From positions 682,001-746,000 of the forward strand of contig CATKHK010000007.1 of assembly GCA_949751835.1 (NCBI GenBank): a DNA stretch of 64,000 bases, written 5' to 3'. Numbering within the stretch: the stretch's first letter is position 1; the number at the start of each line of letters is the position of its first letter. The position numbers and the translations under genes were made by a program. Of the stretch, positions 9,229 through 49,189 are shown piece by piece. Below the pieces are notes generated by a model. The model had not been told where the DNA came from and did not search any database. It worked only from the letters and a program-made list of their open reading frames with translations. The DNA is from Blepharisma japonicum (lineage: Eukaryota > Ciliophora > Heterotrichea > Heterotrichida > Blepharismidae).

Positions 9229-10626
9229 ATGGGCAGTTGCAATTCCATGAGCAAAACAAAAAACTCAATAAAACCCCAAATCTCACAATCAATCGACAAA
9301 CGAGAATTTCCACGCACAGGACTAGTAAAAATTAAAAAAAGAAATAATGTTGGCAAGGTTACAAGTGCCCATGACCTCAGTTTTGAACTAACCGAACCAA
9401 AATTTGTAATTTCCAAGCTGCTCAATTTAGGTGACCAAAGAATATGGGCATCTGCTTGTATTCTCCCTGGTTTAGACCCTCACAAAGAGCAAGACAAAAA
9501 ATGCCAGGATTTTTGCATTTTTGCCTGTGATGGGGATAGCATTTTTCTAGCTGAATTTGACGGGCATGGGCCAGTAGGTGAAAAAGTGGTCGAATTTTGT
9601 GGAAATATTGTCCAAACTGAATATAATTCCTCTAAGCTTTTATATCAAGTAACTGTCATTTAGGCAAATCCTCCAGACTTTTTGACAAATATAACACTTA
9701 AATGTGATGAAGAGCTCAGAAAACCATCAAGTGGGGTCGACGTCACCCGCTCTGGCAGCACCGAGGTCCTTTGCCTTATTCATAATAACACGATTTTTTC
9801 CGCAAGTGTAGGCGACTCACGTGCAGTTCTCGCTACCACCTGCCCTCCTCTTCGTCCCCCAGCCCCACAAGCAGCAATTAATAAAGAACGCCAGCTCTTA
9901 GAAGAAGCCAATAAGCGTAGAAACAGCGTGGTAAACCCACTAATCCATAGCGTGCAGCTTACAAAGGACCAAAAACCTGAAGATCCTGACGAATTAGCAA
10001 GAATTTATAAAGCTGGAGGAAGAGTCCAAAGACTGACTGACGAGCATGGTAATAAAATTGGTCCTTATCGTGTATGAGAGATGAATGCGAATTCTCCTGG
10101 ACTTGCTATGTCCAGATCTATAGGAGATACCATAGGTTCAAGGCTTGGAGTTATTGCAAGCCCTATAACAACTGTCCATCATATGAGTGTTGGGGATGAT
10201 TGTTTTGTGATAGCTGCCTCTGACGGGGTATGAGATGTTTTTGAAAATAAAGACGCTGTGAATTTTGTGGAATATTATAGAAATAAATGCAAAAGAGATA
10301 TTACTGAAAGACCACATGTAGATAAGGTTAGCTATGAAAATACATGTATAGCACATTTATTATGTGAAGAAGCAAGAATGAGATGATATGCAATTGTTGG
10401 GGAGGAGGATGTGCTGATTGATGACATTTCGTGTGTGATTATAGAGTTTAGAAGCGAAAGTGTAGGGATTACGAGGGAATCTGGAGTACTGCCTGACGCA
10501 AATACGCAACAAGCTATGAATCCTGAAGAGCATAATCAGCTGAAAAGAGCTCCAACCACTCATGATGTTCAAGTGAGAGACCCCAGAAGAGGCTCAGTTG
10601 TTACGGATAGAATTGAATATGAATAA
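9229..10626 (+). CDS. PP2C-family Ser/Thr protein phosphatase
   Basis: Metal-dependent phosphatase of 460 aa encoded by two exons (9229-9648 and 9664-10626) with UGA-Trp codons in the second. Visible PP2C motifs in order are EFDGHGPVG (metal-binding Asp and Gly), SASVGDSRAVL, LAMSRSIGD, ASDGVWDVF and IDDISCVIIEF, which supply the metal-coordinating acidic residues of the family. The N-terminus MGSCNS fits an N-myristoylation site with an adjacent Cys for palmitoylation, so membrane attachment is likely, as in several ciliate and apicomplexan PP2Cs. A polar tail of about 60 residues follows the domain. Confidence 0.92.
9649..9663 (+). other. 15-nt intron in the PP2C gene
   Basis: GTAACTGTCATTTAG interrupts the frame in phase 0 with a TAG at its 3' end. 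Without it the protein stops before the catalytic core is complete; with it removed KLLYQ joins ANPPDFLTN and all later PP2C motifs fall in one frame. Confidence 0.93.
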
Positions 10627-19053: not shown

Positions 19054-20328
19054 TTAACTATCATTAAAATATGCTTTAAGATAGTCTGCAACTGCAAATT
19101 TATGACTTGGAGCATTCAATGTTATAGCCTCACCTTTAGTAACCCTCTCTCCTTTTCTAAGGCCATACCCTCTTTGAGAATATAGCAAATTATGTCTAAG
19201 TAGCTCTATCACTACATCTTTACCGAATTCCTTATCAAGATCGCTTCTAAGAACAAAATCTTGTTTTACTAGCTTTTTATATATTGCTATTAATGCTTTC
19301 TCTTCATCTGGTTTTAATATTATATTTGATGCAGATATATAAGGCAAATCTAAGGATAACCTTTCTTCTCTATATTCTATTATTTGATCTTCAGTTATAG
19401 TTTCATCTCCATCGCCTAAAAGGTCATTTATTTCGAGGATATTTCCCCCATGAAATTCGTAGATCATTTCATGAAATCTCTCAGGAACTTTTCTCATTTT
19501 CAAATAACAAAATACTTCCTCTTTAGAAAGTCACCCAAGATAGAACTCCCGATATGCTCCACTTTTTAAATTACAATTTTCTTTGAAGTGGCTGACAAGA
19601 AAAGAATCAGTAGTGGCTAAAAGTACTGAAAGTTTATTCTCTTCCTTTGATTTTCTGACCAAAAAATCAAGAAAAGAATTGACAAATTCCTGATCTTTCT
19701 CATTTCTTACCTTATTAAATTCGTCAATAAATAAGACTAAATTAATTTTGGAAGGCAAGAAAATAAATTTATGATAATTTTCAATAGCTGCTTCAAGTAC
19801 TTTAGTAAAATTTTTACCAGTAATTTCTCTTGGATTTACCCTTGGAGATGCATGAAGATAAGACTCTATGTTTTCTATCCAAGGAATTGAAGTCTTGATA
19901 TTAATGCCATTATTTGTTTCGTTTTTATCAGAGTATGCATTTTTAAGGTGCTGCATAAAAGTAAGATGCGTATTAAATGATGTAGCCAGTTGTGAAATCA
20001 AATTGTCATCTTCGCTATTTTCTACTCTCATTGTGCGCATGTTATGAGTAATTGGGACGAATTGGTTCAAGTCTTTGAGCATTTCTTTAACGAGAAGTGA
20101 TTTCCCACAATTTGGAGGGCCAGTTAGAAAAAAAATTCTTTTATCCTTCCTTTTCAATAAGTTAGATAATTTACTCATTTCTTCCTTTCTGTAGAAAAAG
20201 TCATCACTTGGCTCATAAAATCTCTGGAGATCTGCTAACCCACTTTCTTTGTAATCTTGCGAGGAAGAGCCAAACATTCTTGCTTTGATGCCAGAGCTTC
20301 CCCAGAATTTCCTGATAACCATCAGCAT
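19054..20328 (-). CDS. Archaeal-type (ATPase_2-like) STAND P-loop ATPase with winged helix
   Basis: 424 aa, joining two frames through one UGA-Trp (YLGWLSKEE). The N-terminus has a FYxRxxEMxxLxxLL box before the P-loop, as in the ATPase_2/MNS branch of STAND NTPases. Walker A is GPPNCGKS (70-77) and Walker B LVLFIDEF (197-204), followed by a sensor-like segment LSVLLATTD. The C-terminal 120 residues are helical and look like a winged helix (KLVKQDFVLRSDLDKEFG, then HNLLYSQRGYGL). Related proteins are common in archaea and scattered in amoebae and ciliates, with unknown roles. ORC/Cdc6-like ATPases are the alternative, but the pre-P-loop box favours ATPase_2. Expected location, nucleus or cytosol, is not shown. 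Confidence 0.75.
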
Positions 20329-33660: not shown

Positions 33661-34488
33661 CAAAATCCGAGTCCAAGGAAGAGAATTATTGCTGATTTTA
33701 AAGATATCAAAATTGCTTTTCTCTAGTTGGCTGTAAAAATGATCACATTGTGATAGTGGTAAAAATGCAATATTTGTGTATTTCTGCAGGCTTGGCAGCA
33801 TTTCTCTAGCTTTTTCCATATTCTGTTTACCATAAGCAGCAACTTCTAAAATTACGTCAAAAAATTGTTCGGGGATTTTTTCTTTTTGGTCCTGATCATC
33901 CATTGCTACACTTATAGGAAGTTTGTATTTTGTTAAAAGTTCTTCTGGGAAATAAAATCTGCCGTTTGCTGTATAATGCTTAGATAGTAGCAATAAATCA
34001 CTGACTCCCCAAGCTCGGCCCGCAAAAGTTGCAGCTGTAAACTCTGTTTCTCCAAAAAGTCCAAATAATTCAAGCAAAATATAAAAAGTCATTGTGTAAT
34101 TATTGTCAATAAATCTATCAAAATGTTGCCAAGTCTTAATTTCTTGGTCTTGAAGCCTGCCTCTTATCATCCTTTCAAAATGGCTTCTTCTTACAGTCGA
34201 GTATTTTCTGAGCTCACAAAGAGATATTGATAGAGGCTCTCGAGCTGGTCTTAGTTCTCATATATCATTAAGATTGGAAAGCCACCATGCAAGCTTAGAA
34301 GCCTTAAGAGTTGGGTTTGTCACTGTTTCTTGAGCTTTTAATAATTCGAGTCTAAATGAGTGGACTGCAAAATAGAACTGCCGAAGCTCAGCAGGAATGA
34401 ATTTTCCATGAAGAGAAACTCCAATATCAAGAGAGCTAGCTTGTTTTTCACAATATTCTAGGGCTTTCCAGGGCTCGAAAATACTCAT
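33622..34488 (-). CDS. NDUFAF6-like (squalene/phytoene-synthase-fold) complex I assembly factor
   Basis: 288 aa; UGA-Trp joins the two halves (LNDIWELRPAREPLS). The pattern follows NDUFAF6: FYFAVHSFRLELLKAQETV, KLAWWLSNL, REPLSISLCEL, the helix WQHFDRFIDNN, a FAGRAWGVSDLLLL block, FYFPEELLTKY and the C-terminal ALPLSxCDHFYSQLEKSNFDIF block. The Asp-rich substrate motifs of true phytoene synthases are absent, as in the animal protein, which acts in mitochondrial complex I assembly. Start taken as ATG 34488; an upstream ATG at 34539 would add 17 residues and may form part of a targeting sequence. The last 12 codons lie in repeat copy 2. Confidence 0.8.
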
Positions 34489-34590
34489 TTTTAACAATTT
34501 ATAGCTATTACATTCATTAAGAATATAAAATATGTACAACTAATTAATGATAATTCACTAATCATGAATCATCAAAATGCTGTAAATCAT

Positions 34591-34780
34591 AATTTCTTGA
34601 TTTTGAAATCAATATCTTACCATCCTTTCAAAATAGTCTCTCTTTTCTGTCGACTACTTAAAGTTCGAGATATTATAAAGCTTTTCAAAGTTTGAAAGTG
34701 CTCATATAAAAGCTTAAAATGCCATTGTGATCTTTAGTGAAACTAAGTTTTAGCTCTTACATTTATATCTAGCTCTCATA
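34591..34780 (-). pseudogene. Decayed partial copy of the NDUFAF6-like gene
   Basis: Aligns, with many substitutions and small indels, to about 34140-34340 of the neighbouring gene; the clearest shared block is ATCCTTTCAAAATRG with CTGTCGA/CAGTCGA following. No frame survives. It is an old tandem fragment sitting between the NDUFAF6-like gene and POLD2. Confidence 0.55.
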
Positions 34781-34866
34781 AAGTCATCAATACAAGAAGA
34801 TATTTTGCGATGTTTATATTCAATTAACCTAAACAGCAAATATGTCCCGCTTTGCTTCTAAATAAA

Positions 34867-36180
34867 ATGTCAGCTCCCGCGAAAGGCAGATCTATCAGCT
34901 ACTCCTATGAATTCCTCGGATCACGATTTGAGTCAAAACTCGACTTCACAGCTCAATATTTTAACTTATACCGATCAAGACTTAATGCTTTACATTGGAG
35001 ATCAATCGACACTGCAAAAGCTCAGCGGGATGTTCCAATTTTGCACCAAATAATGGAACTAAAGCCAGACAATGCTTGCATAGTATCCGGCGTTATTGTA
35101 AGAAATCACAAAGCAAGGCCTTCTATTATAGAAAAATATATAGCAAAAGTCGGGACTTTGGAACCTCGTCCAAGCTGTTTTGGTAGTTTTTGTTCTGAAA
35201 AAGACGAAATTTATTTAGAAGACGAAAGCGGAAGAGTTCTATTAGATTTCAGGAACTCAGAAAGTGACTGAAATGACTTAATCACAGGAATCGTAGTTGC
35301 CGCCTATGGAATTTTGCGAGAAAACGCAGTTTTCGAGACACTTTCTCTATATTATCCACAAGTAGACAGACCACTTCCGCTAGAAAAAGCAGGCGAGGAG
35401 TATATATGCTTTGTATCAGGCTTAGAAATTGGTAGTCCTTATTATGATATGATTCTTCTGCATCTCCTAGCTCAATTCATACAAGGAAATTTAGGCTCTC
35501 AATCCTATGATGAAGCTAGCAAAATTGTAAGACTTGTAATATTAGGTGACTCAATATATAAGCCAGACACAGCCAGGACTGTAGATAGAAAAGCAATAGG
35601 TGACCAAGTCGTCAGAGGATTTACAGAAATTAACGAATCCTTGAAATTTCTCGACACTTTTCTAGCTGAATTAGCAGGGACTATTCCAGTTGATATTATC
35701 CCTGGAGAAATGGACCCTTCAAACTGCTCTTTACCTCAGCAGCCATTAAATCCTTATTTATTCCCTATAGCGAGCAGGTATTCTGCATTGCAATCTTTTC
35801 CTAATCCATATGAATTTACTATAGATAAATGCAGAATTTTGTGTACGGCTGGACAAAATATTTCTATGTATTCACATTATGCTCCGCCTGATAAGACTTT
35901 TGCTGAACTTATGGCTCTTAATGTGAAACATAGACATATAGCTCCAAATGCACCAGATGCATTGCAGTGTATTCCTATGCAGGATAAAGACCCATTTATT
36001 TTGGATAATTTACCACATTTGTATGTAGTGGGGAATTTAGGGAGTTATCAGACAGCTGCGGAAGATGGGGTTAAGCTGGTAGCTGTGCCGAGGTTTTCAA
36101 GCCCTGGGCATAATATTGTGCTTGTGAATAGGTTTACATTGGAGTCAAAAACAATATCATTTGAGTCAATGATTGATTAA
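34867..36180 (+). CDS. POLD2: DNA polymerase delta small (regulatory) subunit
   Basis: B-subunit of replicative DNA polymerase delta, 437 aa. One UGA-Trp joins two frames. The N-terminal OB-fold region carries the YxxRLxxL and EDESGRVxLDF blocks typical of POLD2. The inactivated phosphodiesterase domain follows: ICFVSGLEIGSP, LVILGDSI, VDIIPGEMDPSNCSLPQQPL, CTAGQNI and the C-terminal HLYVVGN block. The catalytic metal ligands of active phosphoesterases are replaced, as expected. It tethers the catalytic subunit to POLD3 in the nucleus. Start is the ATG at 34867; an upstream TTG adds only five codons. Confidence 0.96.
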
Positions 36181-36257
36181 TTAATTAAAAATATGCTTTA
36201 TAGCAGAATGAAGCCTTTGCTTATAGAAATTCCTAAGATTTCTGCGAATTAAATATT

Positions 36258-39200
36258 TTAAAGTTTAATAATGTTATTAAAATTTGATTTTTGCCTCCGG
36301 ACGCCTAGGTAGCGTTTTCTTTTGGACTTTTTGTCAATCATACTCCAAGCTCTTAGTTCTTCTTCTCATTCTTCTTCATCATCAGATTCGGAATCATTAT
36401 GGTTTACTTCTGAGTGGTATCTAATAGTGCTTGGAATTGTGTGTTGATCTTCTAGAGATCTTATTCTTTTAAATTCTAAATCTGTGAAACTCTCAATGCG
36501 CAAATTAGAAGCAAGTTCTCTTATTTTTGCTGGTAAGTTCATACATTCTTTAAGCAAATTCGACTCTAAAAGATCTTGAGAAATAGTATTTCCAACATTA
36601 TAAGGGATCACTTCTTTTCTTGATAAACTTCTATCAAGGCATGCTAAAAGCATAGATGATGATTCCAATGGTTCTAATGGCTTTATTTCAATTTTTGTAT
36701 AAGGTGACTTTACACACATTTGGGAGCTTGTAATAACCAAACTTAATTTATATACCTTCAATAATAGCTCTATTAAGCTTGAAAACTGATGGTTTGCTTC
36801 TTTAAGCACCTCATCACAATCATCCAAAATCAGCAAAATATTTTTATTCTTAAGACTTTTTTCATTTTTTTCATCTAAAGACACAACCCACCCTTCTCTT
36901 TCCAAGCACTCATAAAACTTAGCAAAACTCTTCTGATCTTTTAAGCTAATCCAAAAAGTCCCATCATTATATATATACCGTGAATTCACAAAGCTCATCA
37001 GCTGCTTCACAAGTCTTGATTTCCCTACACCTTTTTGTCCGACTATATGGACGATTTTTTTATCAAAAAGTTCTTGGATAATTTCAAACATAAGCTTGTG
37101 GCGGCCTATTAAATGATTTTTCTTTTTATTTATATTTGTAGGAGGGGTCGGATGAGTCATATCTAGAATTCTGCCTGGATTAAGCAAAGATTCACTTGAA
37201 AGGATATTGTGAATGGAATTTCGGAATAATGCCACATTGCCGTTGCCTATTAAAATTGGGCCTTTTCCAAGATAAAGTTTGGGGCGATTTTTTGAGATTC
37301 CGCTGAGATGTTGGAATAAAATTTTGTTTTCACGAATAAAATTATCGCTGATGTTTTTGCTTTTTTCTCAGGCTGAATATAATGTGTGGCCTTCTATAAT
37401 AGAAATATAAAAATTTTCACAGAATAGTTCAATTGCCCTCTCAAACATCATTTGAAGCTGCACTATATGCTTATACATAGGAAATTCTTCATAATCAAAG
37501 CACAATATATGGCTTATTCCTAATTGAGTATTTAAATATAGGCCAAGGTTTGCTGAAAAGGGCATAGCTAAAACTATCAAATCAAGCCCTGGTCTCTCAT
37601 TGCTTGGGCCAAAAAGAAGATCCATCTCAGATACTCTTATAGGATCTGCATAAAATCGATTTGATTCAAGTACAATTGCATCCTTTTGAGGCATATTTGA
37701 AGAAAAATGTAAAACTCTACACCCTTCTTTAATGTATTTTTTAAAATTTTCACGTGTGCCTATATCACTTTTAATGAAAAAGCTTTTATTTTTCCTTTGA
37801 AGATTTCTAAGCAAGCTTGATTTAAATTCCGCAAAATAGCTCGATATAATAAAATCTGCTCCATAATGTCCTGTAGCTATATCAACAGATACCAATGGAT
37901 AAGCCCTCAACAATACAATCACATTATTAGTCCTTCTTTTAATTCTGTCAAAAATTAAATTTAATTTTTCTTTTATTTCAATTTCTTTATTCCTATCCTT
38001 CAATAATTTTGCAATATCAAGAGCTTTCATTCAGACTTCTTCTGCATTTACAAACATTTCATTGCAAAAATACATTTCCCCAAGAATATAATAATTTATT
38101 TCCTCAAGAGCTTTTAAATTAAGCTCACTGAAAACTTTTCCTGAAAAAGTGAGAAAATCGATCATTTCTTCATGAAAAACATTAAAAGAATGTGCCCATT
38201 TGCAGTAGGCCAGATTTATTCTAGCTAAAACTAGTTTGTTTGGCCAGCCATTTTCTGAATCACATTTATTTCTAGCTATTTTAAACAGCTCTTCTATATC
38301 CCCAAATCGTAGACTTCCTTTAGATTGTATCATTGCCATAGCTTTTAATAAATAGCACTCAGATAAAGAGTCGTTAATATTCTGGCATTCAAAATAATGC
38401 CTTGCTTTATCGATTTCTTTATTGACCCGTTCCATTCTGATTTCTTTTTCATAGGTTAATTTCATTGCGCTTCAGGTCAGTCTGAATTTGAAATTTAAAG
38501 AATCATCAACTGCAAAAGCTTTTAAGCACTTTTTGGCACTGTTCAGAAGAGCGAAACCTTCTTTTTTCTTTCTTAGTAAAAATAAGGTGCAGATTGTGCA
38601 TTGGCTGATTTCGAAGATCAAGTTTCCTAGTTTAGGGTGTTTGTAGCTATGAAAAATTGTTTTAATATTATTTTCATTAATAAATTCCATAAAATTAGCC
38701 TTCATATTTTCAAATAAGATTTGTGGCAGTAGCTTAGAATTTGTGACACTTGCAAAAATGTCTTCGTCATGGTCTGGGTTTGAGTAAAGTTTTCATGTAG
38801 AAACAGGTGATAAAGCATTAGAATTTATCACTGATTTCATTGTAGCTGAGCATGCTATATTTGGAACTTGACTAATAGCTTCCATTAGAGCTCTAGAAAG
38901 GCTTGCCAAATATTCCATACATATTATAAACGTATTTTGTATAGAAGATGGCTGGTTAAGCATTTCATGCCTTAAATAGTTTTGGACTTTGTCTGAAACT
39001 ATCACGATCTCATTTAAAGAGCCGATAAATGAGTTTTTTCGCGAATTTGAAATTTTTGTGGAGTGGCTGACTGAGAGGAGATTTTCATTTGAGCTGGAAA
39101 ATATTTTTTGGCGCTTCAGAGGGCTATCATATCCTTTATAACTATCATAATAAATATTGCTATCACTTAGCTTTATTTTTCCAAGTCATTCTTCACCTTC

Positions 39201-41378
39201 TTCATACTCTAAAAGCTGTAATGCATCATGCCAATGTTTTGTGACCTTAAAGCAGATTAGCCCAAGATGCTCTCTGAAGACTCCGGAAGGGAAAATAGAT
39301 AGTAAATTGATAATTTCAAAAGACTCAGGCTTTCGATTCCTTAAGTATGTCAACGATAAATATACAGCCCTACTATCTTCATTTCTCCCTAAAATTGTAT
39401 GACTATTTGTGTATTCTTCAATAAATTCATCAACTGTTTTATCTTGTAATAAAGGCAAACTCTGAAGAAGTTCTGATGGTGATTTTTTTACCACGTTTAG
39501 CAGCTTATCTAAATCCTTCGCAATTTTATGACAAATTTCAGGATTTGTATGTAAAATTTTTAAAGCATTGGACTTTGACATTTCTTTTATCTCAATTTTC
39601 GCCTTGTGGTCGGTATCTATAGGCTTTTCACTAACTATCCAAAACTTCGGAAATTGTGTCCTTTCTATTAGTGACCGAATTTTGTTTTTCACTTTATCAT
39701 TATAATGAGCCAGATTTTCTCCTATATTATCAAGGATAATTAAGACATGCAAGGAATCAATAATTCTAGCGAGCTCTTCCTTGCTTTTTTCTCAAGAAAT
39801 ATTTAAACTTTGGGCGATTGTTGTGTTTATAGCGCTAGAGTTACATTTTCCTTGGAGGTCGATATATATGACTCCATGCTTGAAAAGTCGCCGCTCACAG
39901 GCATAGATGGAAGCACTTTTTACAAGCAAAGATTTTCCCATGCCAGATTTTCCATATACAAAGACAATTCTACTATTTTTTGTTAGGTCCAGCAGCTTCC
40001 TAATATCATCTCCTCTTCCTATTATTTTCTGTTTTACCAGAGGTGGCTTAAATGTAAGCTCAAACCCGCAAAGTTCTTTTATTTCTGTTTCTTTTCTTCC
40101 TGAAAACAGCACTAAATTAGCAGACTCTTCATCAGCTTTAAGCAGCTTAAATTTCATAGCCTCATGATGTGGCACCTCTTGTGAGCAGCAACAAATAACC
40201 CATGATCCTTCCTTAACTTCCATCTCAGTCGGAATTCTCGTATTGTTGAACTTCATAGTAAATTTTTTCCCCCACTCGCATTCAATCTTATGTCTAGCAT
40301 CATAAAGTCTTCTTTCACACCCACAGCTTTCATCAGGACTGTGAGATCTATGATCATTACTTCCTTTTCATAAGCAGTTCCTTTTATGATTATGTGCGCA
40401 GCAACAAGTATTATGCATACCAATTTTCACACTGTTTTTGGCTTCTAAAAAAGAGTCATTTATAGTCCTTCCCATCAGAAGATTTCGGTAGAAACTTGAA
40501 GAAAATTCAATTGCGGCGTCATCTAGAATTTTGCATTGGTCATGGATTGTAATGACACATTTTATACCAGCTTCTAAAAACACGTTGCCGATTGCTTGGG
40601 AAAAGCATGCACTTACGATTACAATACAAAAATATTGAGAAAAAGGCTCTAATATTTTTTTCAGTCTGCTTCTGTCAACTTCATCGACCATTCCTAAGCA
40701 TTCGCTGTCTTCAAATGCCAAGACAAACTCATTTGACCTATTTTTCTTATAATAACCATGGCAACTTATGTGGATTACTTTAGGCTTGCATTCTAAAATC
40801 TCACTTAAATGCTGTAGAGTGGCAGTCTCAAATCGGATTGACGCATAGATTTGGTTCCTTTCAAAAGCATCAAGGATTTTTCGCCTTTCAGCGTTAAAGT
40901 CTAAGTTTCAATTGTCGCATTCTTTTACTTTGAAAGCTCCATCTTTCAAAATTAATGGTGCCGCATAAAGCATGCATATGTCAATAATTTCGGAATTTCT
41001 TTCAGTAACTGGCTCGATTATTTCTTCTACGTTTCTTTGGACAGTTAGATTTCATATGTCGTCTTCTATATCAGCGACTCTATAAAGTAAATGGCCGACT
41101 TCGCTTTTCTCTGAGTTTTTTATTTGTATCTCTATATCTTCATCGTTACTAATATCAATAATAGAATCTTTTTGGAGTTTTCTATATGCGCCTATTTCTT
41201 GATCGTAAATACTAAGTATTGTATCTTTATCTACATAAGCTTGATATTCAATTAATAGATCCAAAATATCAGTATAGCCTATACAGCTCTGCTGCAAAAA
41301 ATTCTCTGGGACTGGAAAACCATATGTTTCGGTTCCTGTGTTTATACTTCCAACGTCGTAGGAGTAAAGCACCCACAT
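36258..41378 (-). CDS. Tandem CHAT-protease / STAND-NTPase protein (NLR-like)
   Basis: One 1706-aa frame with at least ten UGA-Trp. Order: N-terminal 110 residues unrecognised; CHAT caspase-fold protease (about 125-310) with KVIHISCHGYY (His207) and VSACFSQ (Cys258), then AGIKCVITIHDQ and the FYRNLLMGRTINDSFLEAK helix; Cys/His-rich linker (325-400); IGRGDDIRKLLDL box and P-loop GKSGMGKS (476-483), Walker B LIILDN (about 546-552); helical, partly TPR-like region to about 1110; second CHAT-like domain (about 1117-1380) with HFSSN where HGxx is expected and LAMPFS where SAC is expected; IGRHKLMFEII box and second P-loop GQKGVGKS (1447-1454) with LLILDDCDE. Ends in an acidic/basic tail. CHAT proteases fused to NTPases act as signal-triggered proteases in bacteria and fungi; a ligand-gated immune or cell-death role here is inference. 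Confidence 0.88.
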
Positions 41379-41423
41379 AACATAAAATATTTGGCTATCA
41401 AAATTTCATATTTCTTACAAATC
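41379..41423. promoter_or_regulatory. 45-bp divergent intergenic region
   Basis: Only 45 bp separate the ATG of the CHAT-STAND gene (minus) from the ATG of the MGGC protein (plus). Both promoters must overlap or extend into coding sequence. No specific motif is recognised; the sequence is AT-rich. Confidence 0.5.
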
Positions 41424-42563
41424 ATGGGAGGCTGCAACGAACGTGAGACTGTTTTTGAAGAAGAATCAGTGCGAGATCTCAGAACGCAAATGGTAATTGA
41501 GTACCTAAAGCAGCGTAAGCTAATGGTAAAAAATCTTAAAACGCGTAAAACAACTGAGGAGTCAGAAAGTGGTGATGAAAACAGCACGTATTCAGAAGAC
41601 GAAAATAAATCAGCTGAAATCGCACCAATGCAAAGGAAGGAAACAAGAAGGTCGGTAATAGAGGAGCAAGATGAAGCAATCGAAGAAGAGAAAATTCAAA
41701 AAATTGAATTTGCTCCAGCAAAAATGAACCAAGAAGCAAAAACTGAAGAAGTCGTCATAGGAGCTATTGACATCTCACCTGTGAGGCCGAGCTTGGAAAT
41801 CCAAAATATTCCCTATGTCGCTTCTTTTAGACCAACAAAAAAGCCACCTGTAATAGAAAAAATAATCCAAGATGCCCCACCAAGGCCAAGTTTAGGAATC
41901 CAAAAGATTCCTTTAGTACATTCTATAAAGCCAAAAAAGGCTGAAGAGCTTAAAATTGAAAATTTTTCAATCCAGACGTCAGTATCCAGACCTTCGCTTG
42001 GTCTCGAAATCCAGCCAATAACCGTTTTTGAGCCAATTCGGGCGACAATTCATTCTCCTATAAAATTTGAGGAAATTGTAAAAGAAATAAACCAATTAGA
42101 AGAAAGAGATTTTTCTCCTTTGCCAAATGATAAAAAGCCTAAGTTTAAAAAGCTTAAAGAAATCTGTGTAGAAGACTTATATGTTTTCCAAGAAGATATC
42201 AATGAGCCTTTACAGCCTGATATAAAAATCCCTGAAGGAGAAGTCGAAGAGGACATAATAATGATGAAAACTCCTATCATCACAGTAGAAGCTCCTGCCA
42301 AGCAAGAAGCAGGCGTAGAGTCCGCAGAAGAACAAGTCATCGATTTCCAATTTTCTCCAGAAATCCCATCCAGAGATTCTGAAGAAATCAGTATGAGAGA
42401 TAGCTACTCCGGGGCCAACGTATTTGTTAAGTCTCGCAAGCGTATTCATATGTTCAGAGAAAACCCGAAACCTTTAACACCCGAGCTCCACAAGCTGAAT
42501 TTAGAATGCAGACTTACCATTGACGAAGAAGCCCGGAAATCAATCGAAAAAATGAACAAGTAA
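41424..42563 (+). CDS. Disordered, probably N-acylated protein with three RPSLxIQ repeats
   Basis: Not a recognised family. The 379-aa protein starts MGGCNERE: Gly2 and Cys4 fit myristoylation plus palmitoylation, so membrane attachment is likely. The rest is acidic and low in hydrophobics apart from a repeated element VRPSLEIQNIP, PRPSLGIQKIP and SRPSLGLEIQPI (about residues 118, 155, 192), each followed by an aromatic/basic stretch (VASFRP, VHSIKP, ITVFEP). Repeated short linear motifs suggest a docking scaffold. The start was chosen at ATG 41424 rather than the TTG-led extension. It shares a 45-bp divergent spacer with the CHAT-STAND gene; co-function is only a possibility. Confidence 0.75.
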   Translation: MGGCNERETVFEEESVRDLRTQMVIEYLKQRKLMVKNLKTRKTTEESESGDENSTYSEDENKSAEIAPMQRKETRRSVIEEQDEAIEEEKIQKIEFAPAKMNQEAKTEEVVIGAIDISPVRPSLEIQNIPYVASFRPTKKPPVIEKIIQDAPPRPSLGIQKIPLVHSIKPKKAEELKIENFSIQTSVSRPSLGLEIQPITVFEPIRATIHSPIKFEEIVKEINQLEERDFSPLPNDKKPKFKKLKEICVEDLYVFQEDINEPLQPDIKIPEGEVEEDIIMMKTPIITVEAPAKQEAGVESAEEQVIDFQFSPEIPSRDSEEISMRDSYSGANVFVKSRKRIHMFRENPKPLTPELHKLNLECRLTIDEEARKSIEKMNK

Positions 42564-42627
42564 AAATTAAAAGTTGAATAATTCTAAAAATGCTTATTTG
42601 GGCATAAGTCCATAATTAACCATAAAT

Positions 42628-42876
42628 ATGCAGAACGAGGACAAAAAGATAGTTGATCTTTACATCCCAAGAAAATGCTCTGCAACCAACAGACTGGTCG
42701 GACCTAGCGATTATTCAAGCGTTCAATTAAACATAGCTGATGTGAACGAAGATGGAGTCGCCCTCAAGACAAACCAAACTTTTTGCATCTCAGGAAGAGT
42801 CAGAAGACAAGGATTTGCTGATGGATGCCTTAACAGGCTTTTCAAAGAGAAAGGACTTTTAACTTTCGCTAAGTAG
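42628..42876 (+). CDS. RPS21: 40S ribosomal protein S21 (eS21)
   Basis: Full-length 82-aa eS21. It begins MQNEDKKIVDLYIPRKCSATNRL, the universal N-terminal block, then DYSSVQLNIADVNEDG and ISGRVRRQGFADGCLNRLF. Ends in TAG. A small-subunit ribosomal protein on the solvent side. No UGA in frame. Confidence 0.97.
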   Translation: MQNEDKKIVDLYIPRKCSATNRLVGPSDYSSVQLNIADVNEDGVALKTNQTFCISGRVRRQGFADGCLNRLFKEKGLLTFAK

Positions 42877-43081
42877 TTTAACACTTCCTTCATATAAACT
42901 GGCCTACATTAAAACTCTCATAAGAATTGATTGAATTTAAGCTGAGTTATGAAAATTTCTTTCGTAATTATTGAATCAGTGTGATACCTTAATTCCAAGG
43001 GATTTAATATAACCTAAAAAAGGTAGTTTATGAATAAGTTTAGATAAATTAGAATTTAATCTCATAAATAAGGATAATAAA

Positions 43082-44578
43082 TTAATTTTGTGAAAGCTGA
43101 AATGCAAATTGTTTGAGATTTACAGGCTCCCCTATGTAATGCAAAAATAAAATCGTATTCGAGTGCCTACAAGCTGCAATTTGTTGACTATCAAGAATTT
43201 TGTCAAAATTTACATTAATTTCATGATACTCCAAGCTTGGATTTGCCAGCATTATTTCATACAAATTAGAATAGTGGCAAAAAAGTGGCCGAATCACGTT
43301 GAAATATCATTCTTTTGAGCCTTTTATAGGAGACACAGTTAAACGCTTAGTTTTATAGTCAGCCAAAACATAGTGAAATACCTCAATGTCATGTTCAGGG
43401 AAATAAGTTGGCTGATATTTTTTTGTTTCTTTTTCATCTGCTACTGACTTAGGAGAACCAATAGGAGAGCTTGCTACAGACCTCGACTTTCTTATAATTT
43501 GCTGGTCATATGTTCTGGAAAGCCTTTCTTTATGCTCATTTACCTCTGGCTTAATGATTTTTTTCTGGTACTCTTCTTCAAGTTTTTCGAAAATTCCTTT
43601 ATCATCCAGTTCTTTACAGACCCTTAAACCTTTGTCTACAAACCATGGATCGTAGTCCACAGTCCCATCAGTCAAAGCTTGAAGTACAATGCATAAAACC
43701 CCGGCTTTTACAGCAACTAATGCAATAACTTTTTCTTGTTTCCCAATTTTTATTTTACTTGTTAAGGTAAATTGAGGGAATGTGTTGGTTCTGACAAACA
43801 AAGTATTAGCGTAATACAGCTTCATGACCTCTTTTATGTCATTTTCTGGCAGGTTTCCTGTAATAATGCAGCCTCTATACATAAGCATAACTGAAGTAAT
43901 AACAGCAGATGGAGAATCTAATGTCAAAATCTCATGAACGATAACAGTTTTATCTAAATATAATAAATTCAAACTATCCTGAATATCCATCCTCACCTCA
44001 ACAGAAACTGGCAGCACAAGTGAGCTGCAGCCTAGTGCTAATGGCAAGCACACCTGTGGATAAATAATCGGAGACGTCGAGAAATCCTCATCTTCATATA
44101 AAATATATGGATAAATCCTATAAAACAAACAAATAAATACCGGATCCAGGGCTTTTTTCAGCTTGTCATTCATATCAAGCTTAAGCGTCATTAAGTCTCT
44201 TTGGCTCATACGGCCGCTTCTGCCGCTTCTGGGCGTCCTTTCGCTAATAAGCTCATCTGTTACACTTGGGAAATTGTCAGGCAAAGGGTAAATATTTTTT
44301 ATTCAAAATAAAGCTTCTTTAAAAATAGATGTAAGAATTGTATCTGAAATGGTAGGAATTATTATAGCAAGATAATAGTTTGGGTATAATAAATCTATTG
44401 CAACTTTACAGTTGGGGTATGATAAAATCTGGAAACTCACTATAGGAAATGGGACTGTAAACGAAATTGAGGCGCTTAATGGGTAGAGATAGACAGGCTG
44501 GTCTGGAGAACGGCTACTTAATATGACTGCTGCATATTCGCTTGACCCACTTACACAGCGACTCATAAGGTCTTCCAT
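43082..44578 (-). CDS. Longin-like protein (CCZ1/INTU/HPS superfamily, tentative)
   Basis: 498 aa after joining three frames through UGA-Trp. Two regions have an alternating strand/helix longin look. The clearest is about residues 190-260, where a strand with VMLMYRGCIITGNLPENDIKEVMKLY resembles the "own-subunit" loop of CCZ1/Inturned/HPS4 proteins, which form Rab-GEF or ciliary-polarity complexes. A polar, Ser-rich linker (about 345-390) precedes a final alpha/beta block. No catalytic motif. The superfamily call is tentative; a Mon1/Ccz1-type Rab-GEF subunit or a CPLANE component are the main options. Confidence 0.45.
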
Positions 44579-44859: not shown

Positions 44860-47800
44860 ATGAGCTTTTACTCTGGCTCTGACGATAATTCTGACTATGG
44901 CGGGTTTGAACCGCAGGTCAGCTCAACTCGCAGGTCTTTAAGACAAAGACCTCAAAAGAAGTAATGAACTACGCAGGTACACTGAGATAGACTCTGATAG
45001 CGAAGACGAGATAGCAGGTGAAGAGACTTCTGAACTGGAAACCTGGCAGGTCTTCCTTAATCCACCCATTGACCAAATCCTCGGTTTCTCAAATGACAAG
45101 TACCTCGTCAAATACAAAGACCGCTCATACATCCACCTCAAATGGCTCACTGAGGAGGAAATCATTTCTGAGGGTCGCAATGGCAAACTTAAGCTCAATC
45201 GCTTCCTGAGGGAACGCATGAATCGACTTCCTGAAGAAGAAGGCAAATTCTTTGACCCAGCCTTTACAGACGTCGACCGGGTATTATTGACCACAGAAAT
45301 CTTCCCTGTTGTCCATCCCCGACAGGCAGCTCTCGTAACTGAGCGGTGGCAAGGGAAATGTGCAGGAATTCTTAGCAAAATCATGAATTTTCGAAGAAAT
45401 GAATTCTGCTACGCTATACCTTTCTTATACCCTATTGAGCAGTCAGTCAATGGTGGAGCTGAGTATTACAAGAAGGTAAGGTACCCAATTGACTTTGTAA
45501 CTATCCATAATCGCTTATACAATGGTTACTACACTTTGTCCATGGAATTTTGGAAGGACTTGGGCTTTGTCTTTAAAAACTGCCAATTGTTTAATCAAGA
45601 TAGAGAAGCAGACATCAGGATCATTGGAGACACATTGAGGCAGCTGTCAGTTCACCTTTACAAACTCTGGCATGGCAGCACCACCGATGCAGGGCGCTAT
45701 ACGCTCAAATGGGTCAGTTTGGTTCCCAATTATGACGTGACAAGTCCAGAGTTTCTTCAAGTCGATTTAGAAGCTGAAGAATTCACCCAGCAAGACGAAG
45801 AAGAGGATTTTAACTTAAATGAGCATCATTTGACTCAAGAAGAGCTAGCCCAGATACAACTCGAAGGTGAGACTGACAAGCTCTTCCTCGTCAAATGGAA
45901 AAATTTATCATATAAAGACTCCACATGGGAATCAGAAAGCTTAATCAACAATGCCGCTAAAATTTCTGATTACTACAGGTTTAACCGTGCATTAGACACA
46001 CAAGCACGCCAAGAAATGACTGATTTAAACACAAATTTCACCAAAGTTATGAGCTACCTCTCTGCAGATGAAGCAAATAAGCGATATAGAGGCTATGGAA
46101 ATTCACAGTTAATCCATTTATTGGACTCTATTGACTTCCCTACTTTTGACTCAAGGACGCAAATCCAGCAATTTATTATGTCGCCTGGGTTTAAGGACGG
46201 AAAACACCTCAGAGAGTACCAAGTTTTTGGGCTAAATTGGCTGCTCCGAAATTGGAGCGTCAAAAGAAATAGCATTTTGGCTGATGAAATGGGCTTAGGG
46301 AAAACAGTCCAAATTGTAAGTTTTATTAATACTCTAGTAAACTCTTATAAATTAAGAGGCCCATATCTGGCTATAGCACCGCTTTCGACACTTGCTCATT
46401 GGAAAAAGACTGTTGAGGACTGGACAATGCTGAACTGTGTGGTTTATCATGACCCTAATGGCTCTGAAGGCAGAGAATATTGTAATAAATATGAAAATTA
46501 TTATATAGACATAATGAAAAGGGGAGGAATCAGTGAAAAATCAAAGCTGGTGAAATTCCATATAATGGTCACTTCGTATGAAGTCTTCATGCAAGATTAT
46601 AACAAATTCTTCGTCGATATCCCATGGCAATTGATTGCTATTGACGAAGCTCATCGACTGAAAAACAAACAAGCCAAAATTTTAAGCTTTTTAAGAGAAC
46701 TTCCTTGTAGGAGATTTGTATTAATGACTGGGACTCCTCTTCAGAATAACACAGAAGAGCTGTGGTCACTTTTGAATTTTATTCAGCCTCAAGATTTTGC
46801 TGACCTGAGTAATTTCTTATTTAAATATGGGAATCTTGAAACCAAAGACCAGGTTGAGCAGCTTCAAGAGAACATCAAGCCCTATCTACTCAGAAGGCTT
46901 AAAGAAGAAGTAGAAAAGTCAATCCCCCCTCTTCAAGAAACCATTATCGATGTAGAACTTACAAATATTCAAAAAACCTATTATCGTGCCATTTATGAAA
47001 GAAACCGTTCCTTCTTATGCAGAGGCACCTTAACGCCTCAACTCACCAATATGGAAATTCAGCTGAGAAAATGCTGCAACCACCCCTATTTAATCAAAGG
47101 TGTTGAACAAAGCCACGCTGCAGGACTTATCAGTGATGATGAAAAAATGAAGCGCATGATCGAAAGCTCAGGAAAAATGGTTCTTCTTGACAAGCTCCTC
47201 CCCAGACTAAAAGACCAAGGCAAAAAAGTTCTTATTTTTTCCCAATTCACCCAGATGCTGAATTTGATAGAAGAATACTTACGAATGAAGTACTATAAGT
47301 TCGAAAGGCTGGACGGGTCAGTCAAAGCTACAGATAGACAAGCTTCTATAGAAAGATTTAACACAGAAGAGCAAAATATTGACATTTTCTTATTATCAAC
47401 TAGAGCAGGAGGGCTCGGAATTAATTTGACGTCAGCCCAGGTTGTCATTATTTTTGACAGTGACTGAAATCCTCAGAATGATGTACAAGCTACTGCAAGA
47501 GCCCACAGAATTGGCCAGAAACAAGAAGTCCAGGTATACAGGCTAATTACAGCAAGAACTTATGAAGCTGAAATGTTTGAAAGAGCTTCAAGAAAACTAG
47601 GGCTTGACCAAGCGGTCTTTGCAAGAGATAATAAAGCTGAAATTGAGAATCTGCTGAAATTTGGGGCTTATAGCATATATGAAGAAGATTCAGGCAGAAG
47701 CCAACAGTTCATTGAGTCTAATATTGACCAAATATTGCAGACCAACACTAGAATAGTGGACTACAATTTAATCAAAAATGCTTATTCCTTTTCTAAAAGT

Positions 47801-49189
47801 TCTTTTGTGTCACATGGGTCAGATACTAGTATAAATATTGATGACCCTAATTTCTGGAATAAAGTGTTGCCTCCACAAACGTCGCTCTCGTCTAGACTAT
47901 TAACCAAGCTGAATGATCGCAGCTTTACGGTGGAGTCACAAGGAGAAGAATTCATGCAAGAATTAGAGCTAGCGGTAAATGAGGTGATGGCGTCAAAAAC
48001 CAATATAGAAACGCATAATATTGAAGAAGAGGAAATTCTCACGTCTTTATTGTTCCAGGTCACACAGACTAAACAGTTTGCAAAAGGGACGAGACAACTT
48101 GCACTGCAGTGGATGAACGAGCTTACAAGACCTTTAAGAAATCGATCAAGTAGAAATAAGCCAGATTCTCCACAAATTATGAGCGAAAGTGAAGATGAAA
48201 GCGGCGAAGAAAAAAATAGAAAAAAAATCACAAGCTTCGGAGGGACTGGAATCATATGTGCTCATTGCGAAAAAGAAGGCTGTGGATGAATTTGTGCTGG
48301 CCCATGCAAAAGAGGATATCATGATCAGTGCAAAGATAAAGAGCTGGACTTAAATCATGACTCAAATCTTCCTGAAGATGAAGAAGATAACGTAGCTGAA
48401 CACTTAGGCTGGAAATGTCACGACTGCACCAAAAACAAAGCTGCTTGCTTTGTATGCAGCAAAAAAGGACCATTCGCAGGACACCAGAAAGAAGGCAAAA
48501 ACTATGAAATCGTCGTCAAATGTTCCCTTAACAACTGTGGAAAATTTTTCCACCTTTCCTGCTTAGCAACTAAGCATAAAAAACGCTTTATTTGTCCTTG
48601 GCATTACTGCGGGATCTGCAAAGCTTCAGGAAACTCTAAATCCTTGCTTCAGTGTTCTCGCTGTCCTAATGCATTCCATTTGCGTTGCTATACTAGAAAA
48701 ATAGTCCGACTCAACAAAAGGTACATTGTTTGCCACCAGCATAAGCAGCCACAGCGGCCGCCAATTTATCCATCCCATAAAGCACAGCACAAAGAGAACG
48801 TAAAAGCACTTAAAGAAAAATTAAGCGAGCTATGGAATAAATACAGCCATTTGAGCATAACTGAAGAAGAAAAAAAGGCTGGAGAGCCAAGGAAAAAGAA
48901 AAAAGTCGCTTCAGAGGAACAGGCTAATGAAATTTATCAGAAATATGGACTGTGCTTACCAGAGGATTTTGACTATAAAAATTGCAGAGATGAGTGGTGC
49001 AGATACTGTGGGGCGAGGAAATCAGCTTCTTATGGACCTGGACCCTGGGGGAAGAAGATGCTTTGTATGACACATGCATCTGCTTGGAAAAACAAAAAAA
49101 CATTAAATTTGTCAAGTTATAAAGACGCGCCTGAGGTTCCAATTGATTTGTCGAAGAACACTGAGCTCAATTATTTGCTAAGGTTATAA
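44860..49189 (+). CDS. CHD-like chromatin remodeller: chromo-bromo-chromo-SNF2-PHD
   Basis: Two exons (44860-44960 and 44977-49189) encode 1437 aa with UGA-Trp at conserved sites such as IIFDSDWNPQND. Domains: chromodomain-like (about 55-110, ending YIHLKWLTEEE); bromodomain (about 160-268, with PFLYPIEQ, YYKKVRYPIDF and FKNCQLFN); chromodomain 2 (about 330-375, LFLVKWKNLSYKDSTWES); SNF2 ATPase with DEMGLGKT (Walker A, about 470), IDEAHRLKN and helicase C motifs (STRAGGLGINL, RAHRIGQKQEVQVYRL); acidic linker; and a C-terminal Cys/His-rich PHD cluster (about 1127-1290) resembling the NSD-type PHD/ePHD arrangement, plus a last Cys motif (CRYCGARK). It slides nucleosomes using ATP and probably reads methyl- and acetyl-lysine. 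The bromodomain between chromodomains is unusual. Confidence 0.93.
44961..44976 (+). other. 16-nt intron in the CHD-like gene
   Basis: GTAATGAACTACGCAG interrupts codon 34 (phase 2). Removal bypasses TAA/TGA and links the ATG at 44860 (MSFYSGSDDNSDYGG) to the first chromodomain in frame. Sixteen rather than fifteen nt, the second allowed size class in Blepharisma. Confidence 0.85.

What the first reader, a model, noticed from the sequence alone, without database searches (positions are those of the whole stretch)
36258..41378. A tandem CHAT-protease / STAND-NTPase giant: a candidate ciliate NLR-like signalling protease
Seen directly: a single open frame (UGA as Trp) encodes two modules, each a CHAT-like caspase-fold domain followed by an IGR-type box and a P-loop NTPase. 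The first CHAT has the His and Cys motifs (KVIHISCHG, VSACFSQ). Known: CHAT proteases fused to TPR or NTPase modules act as triggered proteases (TPR-CHAT in type III-E CRISPR, fungal NLR-like proteins). Inference: a ligand-activated protease whose NTPase switches assembly, possibly in self-recognition, conjugation or defence. I know of no described tandem CHAT-STAND architecture in ciliates.
Basis: partly seen in the sequence, partly recalled or inferred. Interest (0 to 1): 0.92.

Follow-up and report, generated by a model that had tools for sequence, protein, structure and literature searches.

The report
Ciliate NLR-like protein, twin CHAT modules
A large ciliate gene appears to join a caspase-like protease and its molecular switch to a second copy of the same pair whose protease has lost its catalytic residues, which makes it a plausible self-contained alarm protease in a group where such systems are little known.

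Summary
Confirmed, with one addition. Minus strand 36258-41378 is one unbroken 1706-codon frame (TGA as Trp). A 15-nt intron in a nearby gene and TGA at conserved Trp positions fit a Blepharisma-type heterotrich. CHAT1 (aa 126-335) is a real CHAT domain (Pfam 2e-13) with His207 and Cys258. Two STAND-type P-loop NTPases lie at aa 446-640 and 1420-1640. The second CHAT is invisible to Pfam and to my CHAT HMM. Profile-profile comparison still beats 150 shuffles and 75 decoy tiles, and an AlphaFold model built with CHAT relatives in its alignment matches the solved SAVED-CHAT protease best. Its catalytic His is Asn1228 and its Cys is Pro1273, so it is a pseudo-protease, though its own NTPase keeps both Walker motifs. 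A moderately confident helical array precedes it. Single-module CHAT-NTPase proteins are known in fungi and were found here in bacteria (13 of 94 CHAT ORFs carry a Walker A motif). A tandem live/dead arrangement was not seen there, nor in print by my five searches. Most likely it is an NLR-like triggered protease regulated by its own pseudo-protease half. Ligand, substrate and activity are untested. New variant of a known kind.

The parts
36258..41378 (-). Whole open frame, 1706 aa, ATG to TAA, 10 TGA read as Trp
41019..41378 (-). N-terminal region aa 1-120, no family above cut-off; AlphaFold block pLDDT 26-74
40374..41003 (-). CHAT1, caspase-fold domain, aa 126-335
   Evidence: Pfam CHAT 2e-13 and 1.3e-13; bacterial relatives; Foldseek 8tl0 1e-9
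40758..40760 (-). His207, predicted catalytic His (HISCHG)
   Evidence: alignments; position
40605..40607 (-). Cys258, predicted catalytic Cys (SACFS)
   Evidence: alignments; position
40179..40421 (-). Cys/His-rich stretch aa 320-400 at the CHAT1-NTPase1 junction (10 Cys, 6 His in 81 residues); possible metal site, unproven
   Evidence: count; low AlphaFold confidence
39459..40043 (-). STAND-type NTPase 1, aa 446-640: IIGR box 452, Walker A GKSGMGKS 476, Walker B-like LIILDN 546
37929..38741 (-). All-helical, TPR-like array, aa 880-1150 (twelve helices)
   Evidence: AlphaFold block pLDDT 39-77, mostly 50-70; Pfam TPR_2 only E 0.072
37194..37922 (-). CHAT2, divergent CHAT-like pseudo-protease, aa 1153-1395
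   Evidence: profile comparison with controls; AlphaFold blocks for aa 1180-1349 at pLDDT 83-93 apart from one at 66; Foldseek 8tl0 5.5e-6
37695..37697 (-). Asn1228 in place of the catalytic His
37560..37562 (-). Pro1273 in place of the catalytic Cys
36459..37121 (-). STAND-type NTPase 2, aa 1420-1640: LIGR 1423, Walker A GQKGVGKS 1447, Walker B LLILDDC 1515

Best explanation
It is a ciliate NLR-like protein of the CHAT-STAND kind. An N-terminal CHAT cysteine protease with an intact His/Cys pair is joined to a nucleotide-switch NTPase. The same chain goes on through a helical array into a second CHAT-NTPase module whose CHAT has lost both catalytic residues but whose NTPase keeps its nucleotide-binding motifs. 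The most likely working: a ligand or disturbance sensed by the helical regions changes nucleotide state and assembly; the two CHAT folds or neighbouring chains come together, the pseudo-CHAT holding or positioning CHAT1; and CHAT1 cuts a downstream protein. Shown by computation: domains, order, catalytic residues, their loss in CHAT2. Inferred: nucleotide switching, assembly, protease activity, the regulatory role of CHAT2, and any link to defence or cell death.
For: Pfam CHAT and STAND matches. His and Cys conserved in CHAT1. CHAT2 above all 150 shuffles and all 75 decoy tiles, aligned in register with Asn and Pro at the catalytic columns. Foldseek best hits are chains of the SAVED-CHAT filament 8tl0 for both modules; for module 1 plant resistosomes and CED-4 are also high on the list, among many ORC, Cdc6 and RFC ATPases. 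NTPase 2 keeps Walker A and a DD Walker B although CHAT2 is dead, which argues against plain decay. CHAT followed by NTPase in the same order in bacteria. CHAT effectors in fungal NLRs, and a fungal TPR-CHAT that activates a gasdermin, as reported in PMC12881547 and PMC10197012 (passages).
Against: No winged-helix domain could be shown after NTPase 1 (profile of two rows, score 14.5; the five best of 100 shuffles reach 14.6-17.5), and Pfam shows none there. The helical array is only weakly TPR-like and of moderate confidence. NTPase 1 has LDN rather than LDD at Walker B. Pfam and my own HMM miss CHAT2, and one hhalign setting gives it only 35% probability. The CHAT2 model was built with CHAT relatives in its alignment, which leans it towards that fold. 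In the module 2 fold search the hits after 8tl0 are general AAA+ ATPases. No executor or substrate was recognised among 17 window proteins scanned, but 6 of these 17 had no Pfam match at all. No ciliate relative was available, so conservation of the dead state is untested.
Confidence: 0.6

Rival explanations
1. CHAT2-NTPase2 is a decaying duplicate without function, carried along behind a normal CHAT-NTPase-helical protein.
For: Loss of both catalytic residues; protein ends soon after NTPase 2 with no repeats.
Against: Frame open over all 1706 codons; Walker A and Walker B of NTPase 2 intact; CHAT2 still recognisable as a fold.
Confidence: 0.15
2. The CHAT domains are not proteases in use but scaffolds or cytoskeletal/cytokinesis parts, as suggested for the metazoan TPR-CHAT protein TTC28.
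For: The human TPR-CHAT homologue is linked to cytokinesis (PMC12314368, passages); neighbours include ordinary genes such as a DNA polymerase delta subunit.
Against: CHAT1 keeps the full His/Cys pair; the partner domains are STAND NTPases, the usual switch of signalling proteins.
Confidence: 0.15
3. CHAT2 is not a CHAT domain but another alpha/beta domain that happens to resemble one; only the first module is CHAT-NTPase.
For: Pfam and my CHAT HMM find nothing there; BLASTP to CHAT1 is E 0.019; hhalign probability is 35% with one setting.
Against: Scores above all 150 shuffles and 75 decoys; the same register from hhalign and MAFFT, into which the weak BLASTP match also falls; Foldseek best hits to 8tl0; same position before an IGR box and NTPase.
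Confidence: 0.07

Closest known systems
Fungal NLRs with N-terminal CHAT protease (PMC10197012, PMC12881547; passages seen)
   Same: CHAT protease and NLR switch in one chain; caspase fused to the receptor
   Different: No tandem module or dead second CHAT in the passages seen; no gasdermin gene recognised near this one
Cyanobacterial CHAT-NB-ARC ORFs (L030 Lyngbya, L073 Nostoc)
   Same: CHAT then NTPase, same order; L030 also has an FVGR box before Walker A
   Different: One module only; a winged helix found in L073; TPR-like (L030) and WD40-like (L073) repeats visible by eye; no Cys/His-rich stretch by the pattern used
SAVED-CHAT protease filament 8tl0
   Same: Best fold match for both CHAT domains; also the only PDB sequence hit of the whole protein, E 0.019
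   Different: Sensor is SAVED, not a STAND NTPase
Type III-E TPR-CHAT (Csx29, Craspase; PMC9729208, passages seen)
   Same: CHAT protease with His/Cys pair under allosteric control
   Different: Activated through a CRISPR effector; no NTPase and no second CHAT mentioned in the passages seen
Metazoan TPR-CHAT proteins (coral expansions, TTC28; PMC12314368, passages seen)
   Same: Eukaryotic CHAT with helical repeats
   Different: Long TPR array then one CHAT; no NTPase described in the passages seen

Membership tests
CHAT protease (PF12770), first domain | Sequence match to the family model | tested here: met
   2e-13, 50.9 bits against cut-off 24
CHAT protease (PF12770), first domain | Catalytic His and Cys | tested here: met
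   His207 and Cys258 aligned with the conserved columns; geometry not measurable, no coordinates given
CHAT protease (PF12770), second domain | Sequence match to the family model | tested here: not met
   No Pfam match to aa 1140-1400
CHAT protease (PF12770), second domain | Caspase/CHAT fold | tested here: met
   Foldseek best hits 8tl0 with profile evidence; the model is biased by its alignment, so met with that reserve
CHAT protease (PF12770), second domain | Catalytic His and Cys | tested here: not met
   Asn1228 and Pro1273
STAND NTPase | P-loop NTPase core with Walker A and B | tested here: met
   Both domains above Pfam cut-offs for AAA_16, NACHT and NB-ARC; Walker B of NTPase 1 is LDN
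STAND NTPase | C-terminal winged helix / MHD region | tested here: inconclusive
   Not found by Pfam or by a two-row profile from L030/L073
NLR | Sensor made of superstructure repeats | tested here: inconclusive
   Helical array at block pLDDT 39-77; TPR_2 E 0.072
NLR | Ligand-triggered assembly and immune or death output | not testable with these tools
   Needs protein and cells
Craspase TPR-CHAT | Partner Cas7-11/gRAMP | not testable with these tools
   Whole genome not held

The most novel reading that the evidence does not exclude
The protein is a built-in protease/pseudo-protease pair on one chain, each half under its own nucleotide switch: a single-polypeptide counterpart of caspase-8 with cFLIP (recalled comparison), in which the dead CHAT controls when the live CHAT fires, evolved in a single-celled ciliate as an innate alarm.
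Probability: 0.3. Interest if true: 0.75.

Novelty: new variant of a known kind. Interest (0 to 1): 0.57.

Why it matters
CHAT proteases tie together bacterial anti-phage defence, fungal gasdermin-driven death and separase. An NLR-like CHAT protein in a heterotrich ciliate would extend the kind to a distant lineage of single cells that eat bacteria. Its dead second half gives a direct test of whether pseudo-proteases regulate CHAT enzymes. My searches of the open PMC library returned no paper for CHAT domain with Blepharisma, ciliate or protist plus caspase, or for STAND NTPase with ciliate and CHAT, and none for six names for tandem, inactive or NTPase-fused CHAT.

Tried and rejected
Own-genome search: no genome is held for this window, so paralogues could not be counted; within the window tblastn found no second copy. 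A viral-contig scan with CHAT1 found nothing. Megablast of 34000-44000 against plasmids found nothing. phmmer of aa 1140-1400 against PDB sequences gave only E 0.37 to an uncharacterised protein, 5x4h. A broad paper search on NACHT, NB-ARC, STAND and ciliate words gave 864 papers, of which I looked only at the 15 listed titles and abstract starts and used none.

Rejected: a winged helix with an MHD-like motif after NTPase 1, which I thought I saw by eye, because the profile test fell within the shuffles. Undecided: whether the two modules arose by internal duplication. The NTPase tree of 14 rows is unresolved (12 of the 13 fusion ORFs plus the two window domains), and NTPase1-NTPase2 similarity (39.7 bits) is no greater than NTPase 1 to a bacterial protein (53 bits). 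Considered and rejected: a tandem in Scytonema L038 (two Walker A motifs, one CHAT); no second CHAT by profile. L080 has two CHAT hits in one ORF, but the ORF begins at the end of the stretch held and has no Walker A.
Full report
What is there. The frame lies on the minus strand, 36258-41378: 1706 codons, ATG to TAA, 10 TGA read as Trp. The nearest in-frame stop upstream is a TAA at 41415-41417, 13 codons before the ATG, with no ATG between; the divergent neighbour's first ATG is at 41424, leaving 45 bp between the two starts. The host is a ciliate of Blepharisma type. TGA sits at the Trp of the SNF2 motif DSDWNPQ in the CHD-like gene and at a Trp aligned with a Trp of lysosomal Pro-X carboxypeptidase. 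A PP2C gene is interrupted by a 15-nt GT...AG stretch with an in-frame stop (9649-9663). PMC9942806 (passages) reports UGA as Trp and mainly 15 and 16 bp introns for B. stoltei. The exact species is not shown: no genome is held for this window.

First module. Pfam finds CHAT at aa 163-317 with E 2e-13; a weaker hit is PADLOC SAVED_CHAT, 8.6e-4. tblastn against plasmids finds 71 records that match some part of the protein (40 listed); the best are CHAT proteins at 32% identity over aa 162-325. With ten plasmid relatives, His207 and Cys258 fall in invariant columns. In the alignment of 78 of these 80 plus CHAT1 and CHAT2, 79 of 80 rows have His and 78 of 80 have Cys; CHAT2 has Asn and Pro, and one bacterial row has Ser for Cys. 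His is largely guaranteed, since the scan pattern and my filter required the HG box; Cys was not required.

NTPases. aa 446-640 and 1420-1640 match AAA_16, NACHT and NB-ARC above cut-off and each other (E 8e-9). Both have an IGR box and a complete Walker A. Walker B is LIILDN in the first and LLILDDC in the second. Foldseek on the model of aa 1-700 (mean pLDDT 66.3) gives CHAT protease 8tl0 in the first five ranks (1e-9), then Cdc6/Orc1, a wheat resistosome, ORC, another plant resistosome and CED-4 among many ORC and RFC ATPases, so the fold search alone does not single out NLRs.

Second CHAT. Pfam is silent, and a CHAT HMM built from the 11-row alignment finds only CHAT1 in the protein. BLASTP to CHAT1 is weak, E 0.019, though its match lies in the register found below. 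hhalign of the 11-row profile gives score 35.5 with one match-state setting (probability 82%) and 32.6 with another (35%). Of 150 shuffles the best reaches 23.9; of 75 tiles from 20 other window ORFs the best reaches 20.1. MAFFT, run two ways, places Asn1228 and Pro1273 in the His and Cys columns. AlphaFold of aa 880-1640 with 46 of the 78 bacterial rows and CHAT1 gives mean pLDDT 71.9, with blocks for aa 1180-1349 at 83-93 apart from one at 66. Foldseek ranks five chains of 8tl0 first (5.5e-6; TM-score 0.33 by the target's length), then general AAA+ ATPases, with the Dark apoptosome and Avs4 further down. Atomic geometry could not be measured.

Between the modules. Twelve helices, block pLDDT 39-77, precede CHAT2; the best family hit is TPR_2 at E 0.072. 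A Cys/His-rich stretch follows CHAT1, with 10 Cys in 81 residues against 10 in the 319 before it and 23 in the 1306 after it. It may bind metal; this is a guess. A winged helix after NTPase 1 was tested and not shown.

How it compares. Of 94 CHAT ORFs (150 aa or more, from 90 loci), 13 carry a Walker A motif, in every case after the CHAT. L030 is CHAT-NB-ARC by Pfam, with TPR-like repeats visible by eye; L073 is CHAT-NB-ARC-APAF1-like winged helix, with WD40-like repeats by eye. Only one of the 13, L038, has two Walker A motifs, and no second CHAT shows there by profile. The HMM used for the count also misses CHAT2 in the window protein, so a dead CHAT elsewhere could have been overlooked; the single Walker A in the other 12 is the stronger argument against a tandem, and ORFs cut by a contig end could hide one. 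The set is the best 80 of a capped scan plus ten plasmid stretches, not a census of bacteria. Fungal NLRs with CHAT are described in PMC10197012 and PMC12881547 (passages), coral TPR-CHAT expansions in PMC12314368 (passages). No open-PMC paper held both Blepharisma and CHAT domain, STAND NTPase with ciliate and CHAT, CHAT domain with ciliate, CHAT domain with protist and caspase, or any of six names for tandem, inactive or NTPase-fused CHAT. The last search also misses the fungal papers, so it is sensitive to wording. Most subscription papers, and preprints, are not held.

Working. The live CHAT1, the two nucleotide-binding modules and the helical array fit a triggered protease. The dead CHAT2 with an intact NTPase 2 fits a regulatory partner better than a relic, but without relatives this cannot be settled. 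Pairing of CHAT1 with CHAT2, ligand, substrate and output are inference. Pfam scans of 17 other window proteins show no recognisable gasdermin or other executor; 6 of the 17 have no match at the thresholds used, and some window ORFs were not scanned.

Noticed in passing
window 9649-9663 (+): A 15-nt intron-like stretch GTAACTGTCATTTAG with an in-frame stop splits a PP2C phosphatase frame; Pfam PP2C E 6.9e-32 in the downstream part.
   Followed up: partly
window 41424-42563 (+): Divergent neighbour whose first ATG gives MGGC, a possible myristoylation/palmitoylation start (recalled motif), without Pfam match; 45 bp separate its start from that of the CHAT gene.
   Followed up: partly
window 45218-49189 (+): A CHD-like remodeller that joins bromodomain, chromodomain, SNF2 helicase and NSD-type PHD fingers in one chain.
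   Followed up: no
window 19054-20328 (-): A protein matching the mainly archaeal ATPase_2 family (6.5e-17) in a ciliate gene neighbourhood.
   Followed up: no
window, several genes: TGA is absent among 23 Trp codons of five conserved genes (kinesin by Pfam; kinase, ribonucleotide reductase, GDI-like and EF-G-like named by eye) but makes up 10 of 20 in the CHAT gene, perhaps an expression effect. The five were picked by eye; other conserved genes do use TGA, such as the CHD-like gene (2 of 22) and the IML1 gene (3 of 15).
   Followed up: no
L080, first 296-aa ORF: A Fischerella CHAT with Ser in place of the catalytic Cys (NASYS), preceded by the end of another CHAT in the same ORF: a possible bacterial pseudo-CHAT tandem, cut by the end of the stretch held.
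   Followed up: partly
L001 2304-7046: Three CHAT genes in a row (the third on the other strand) near TIR and caspase-family genes on a Ti plasmid.
   Followed up: no
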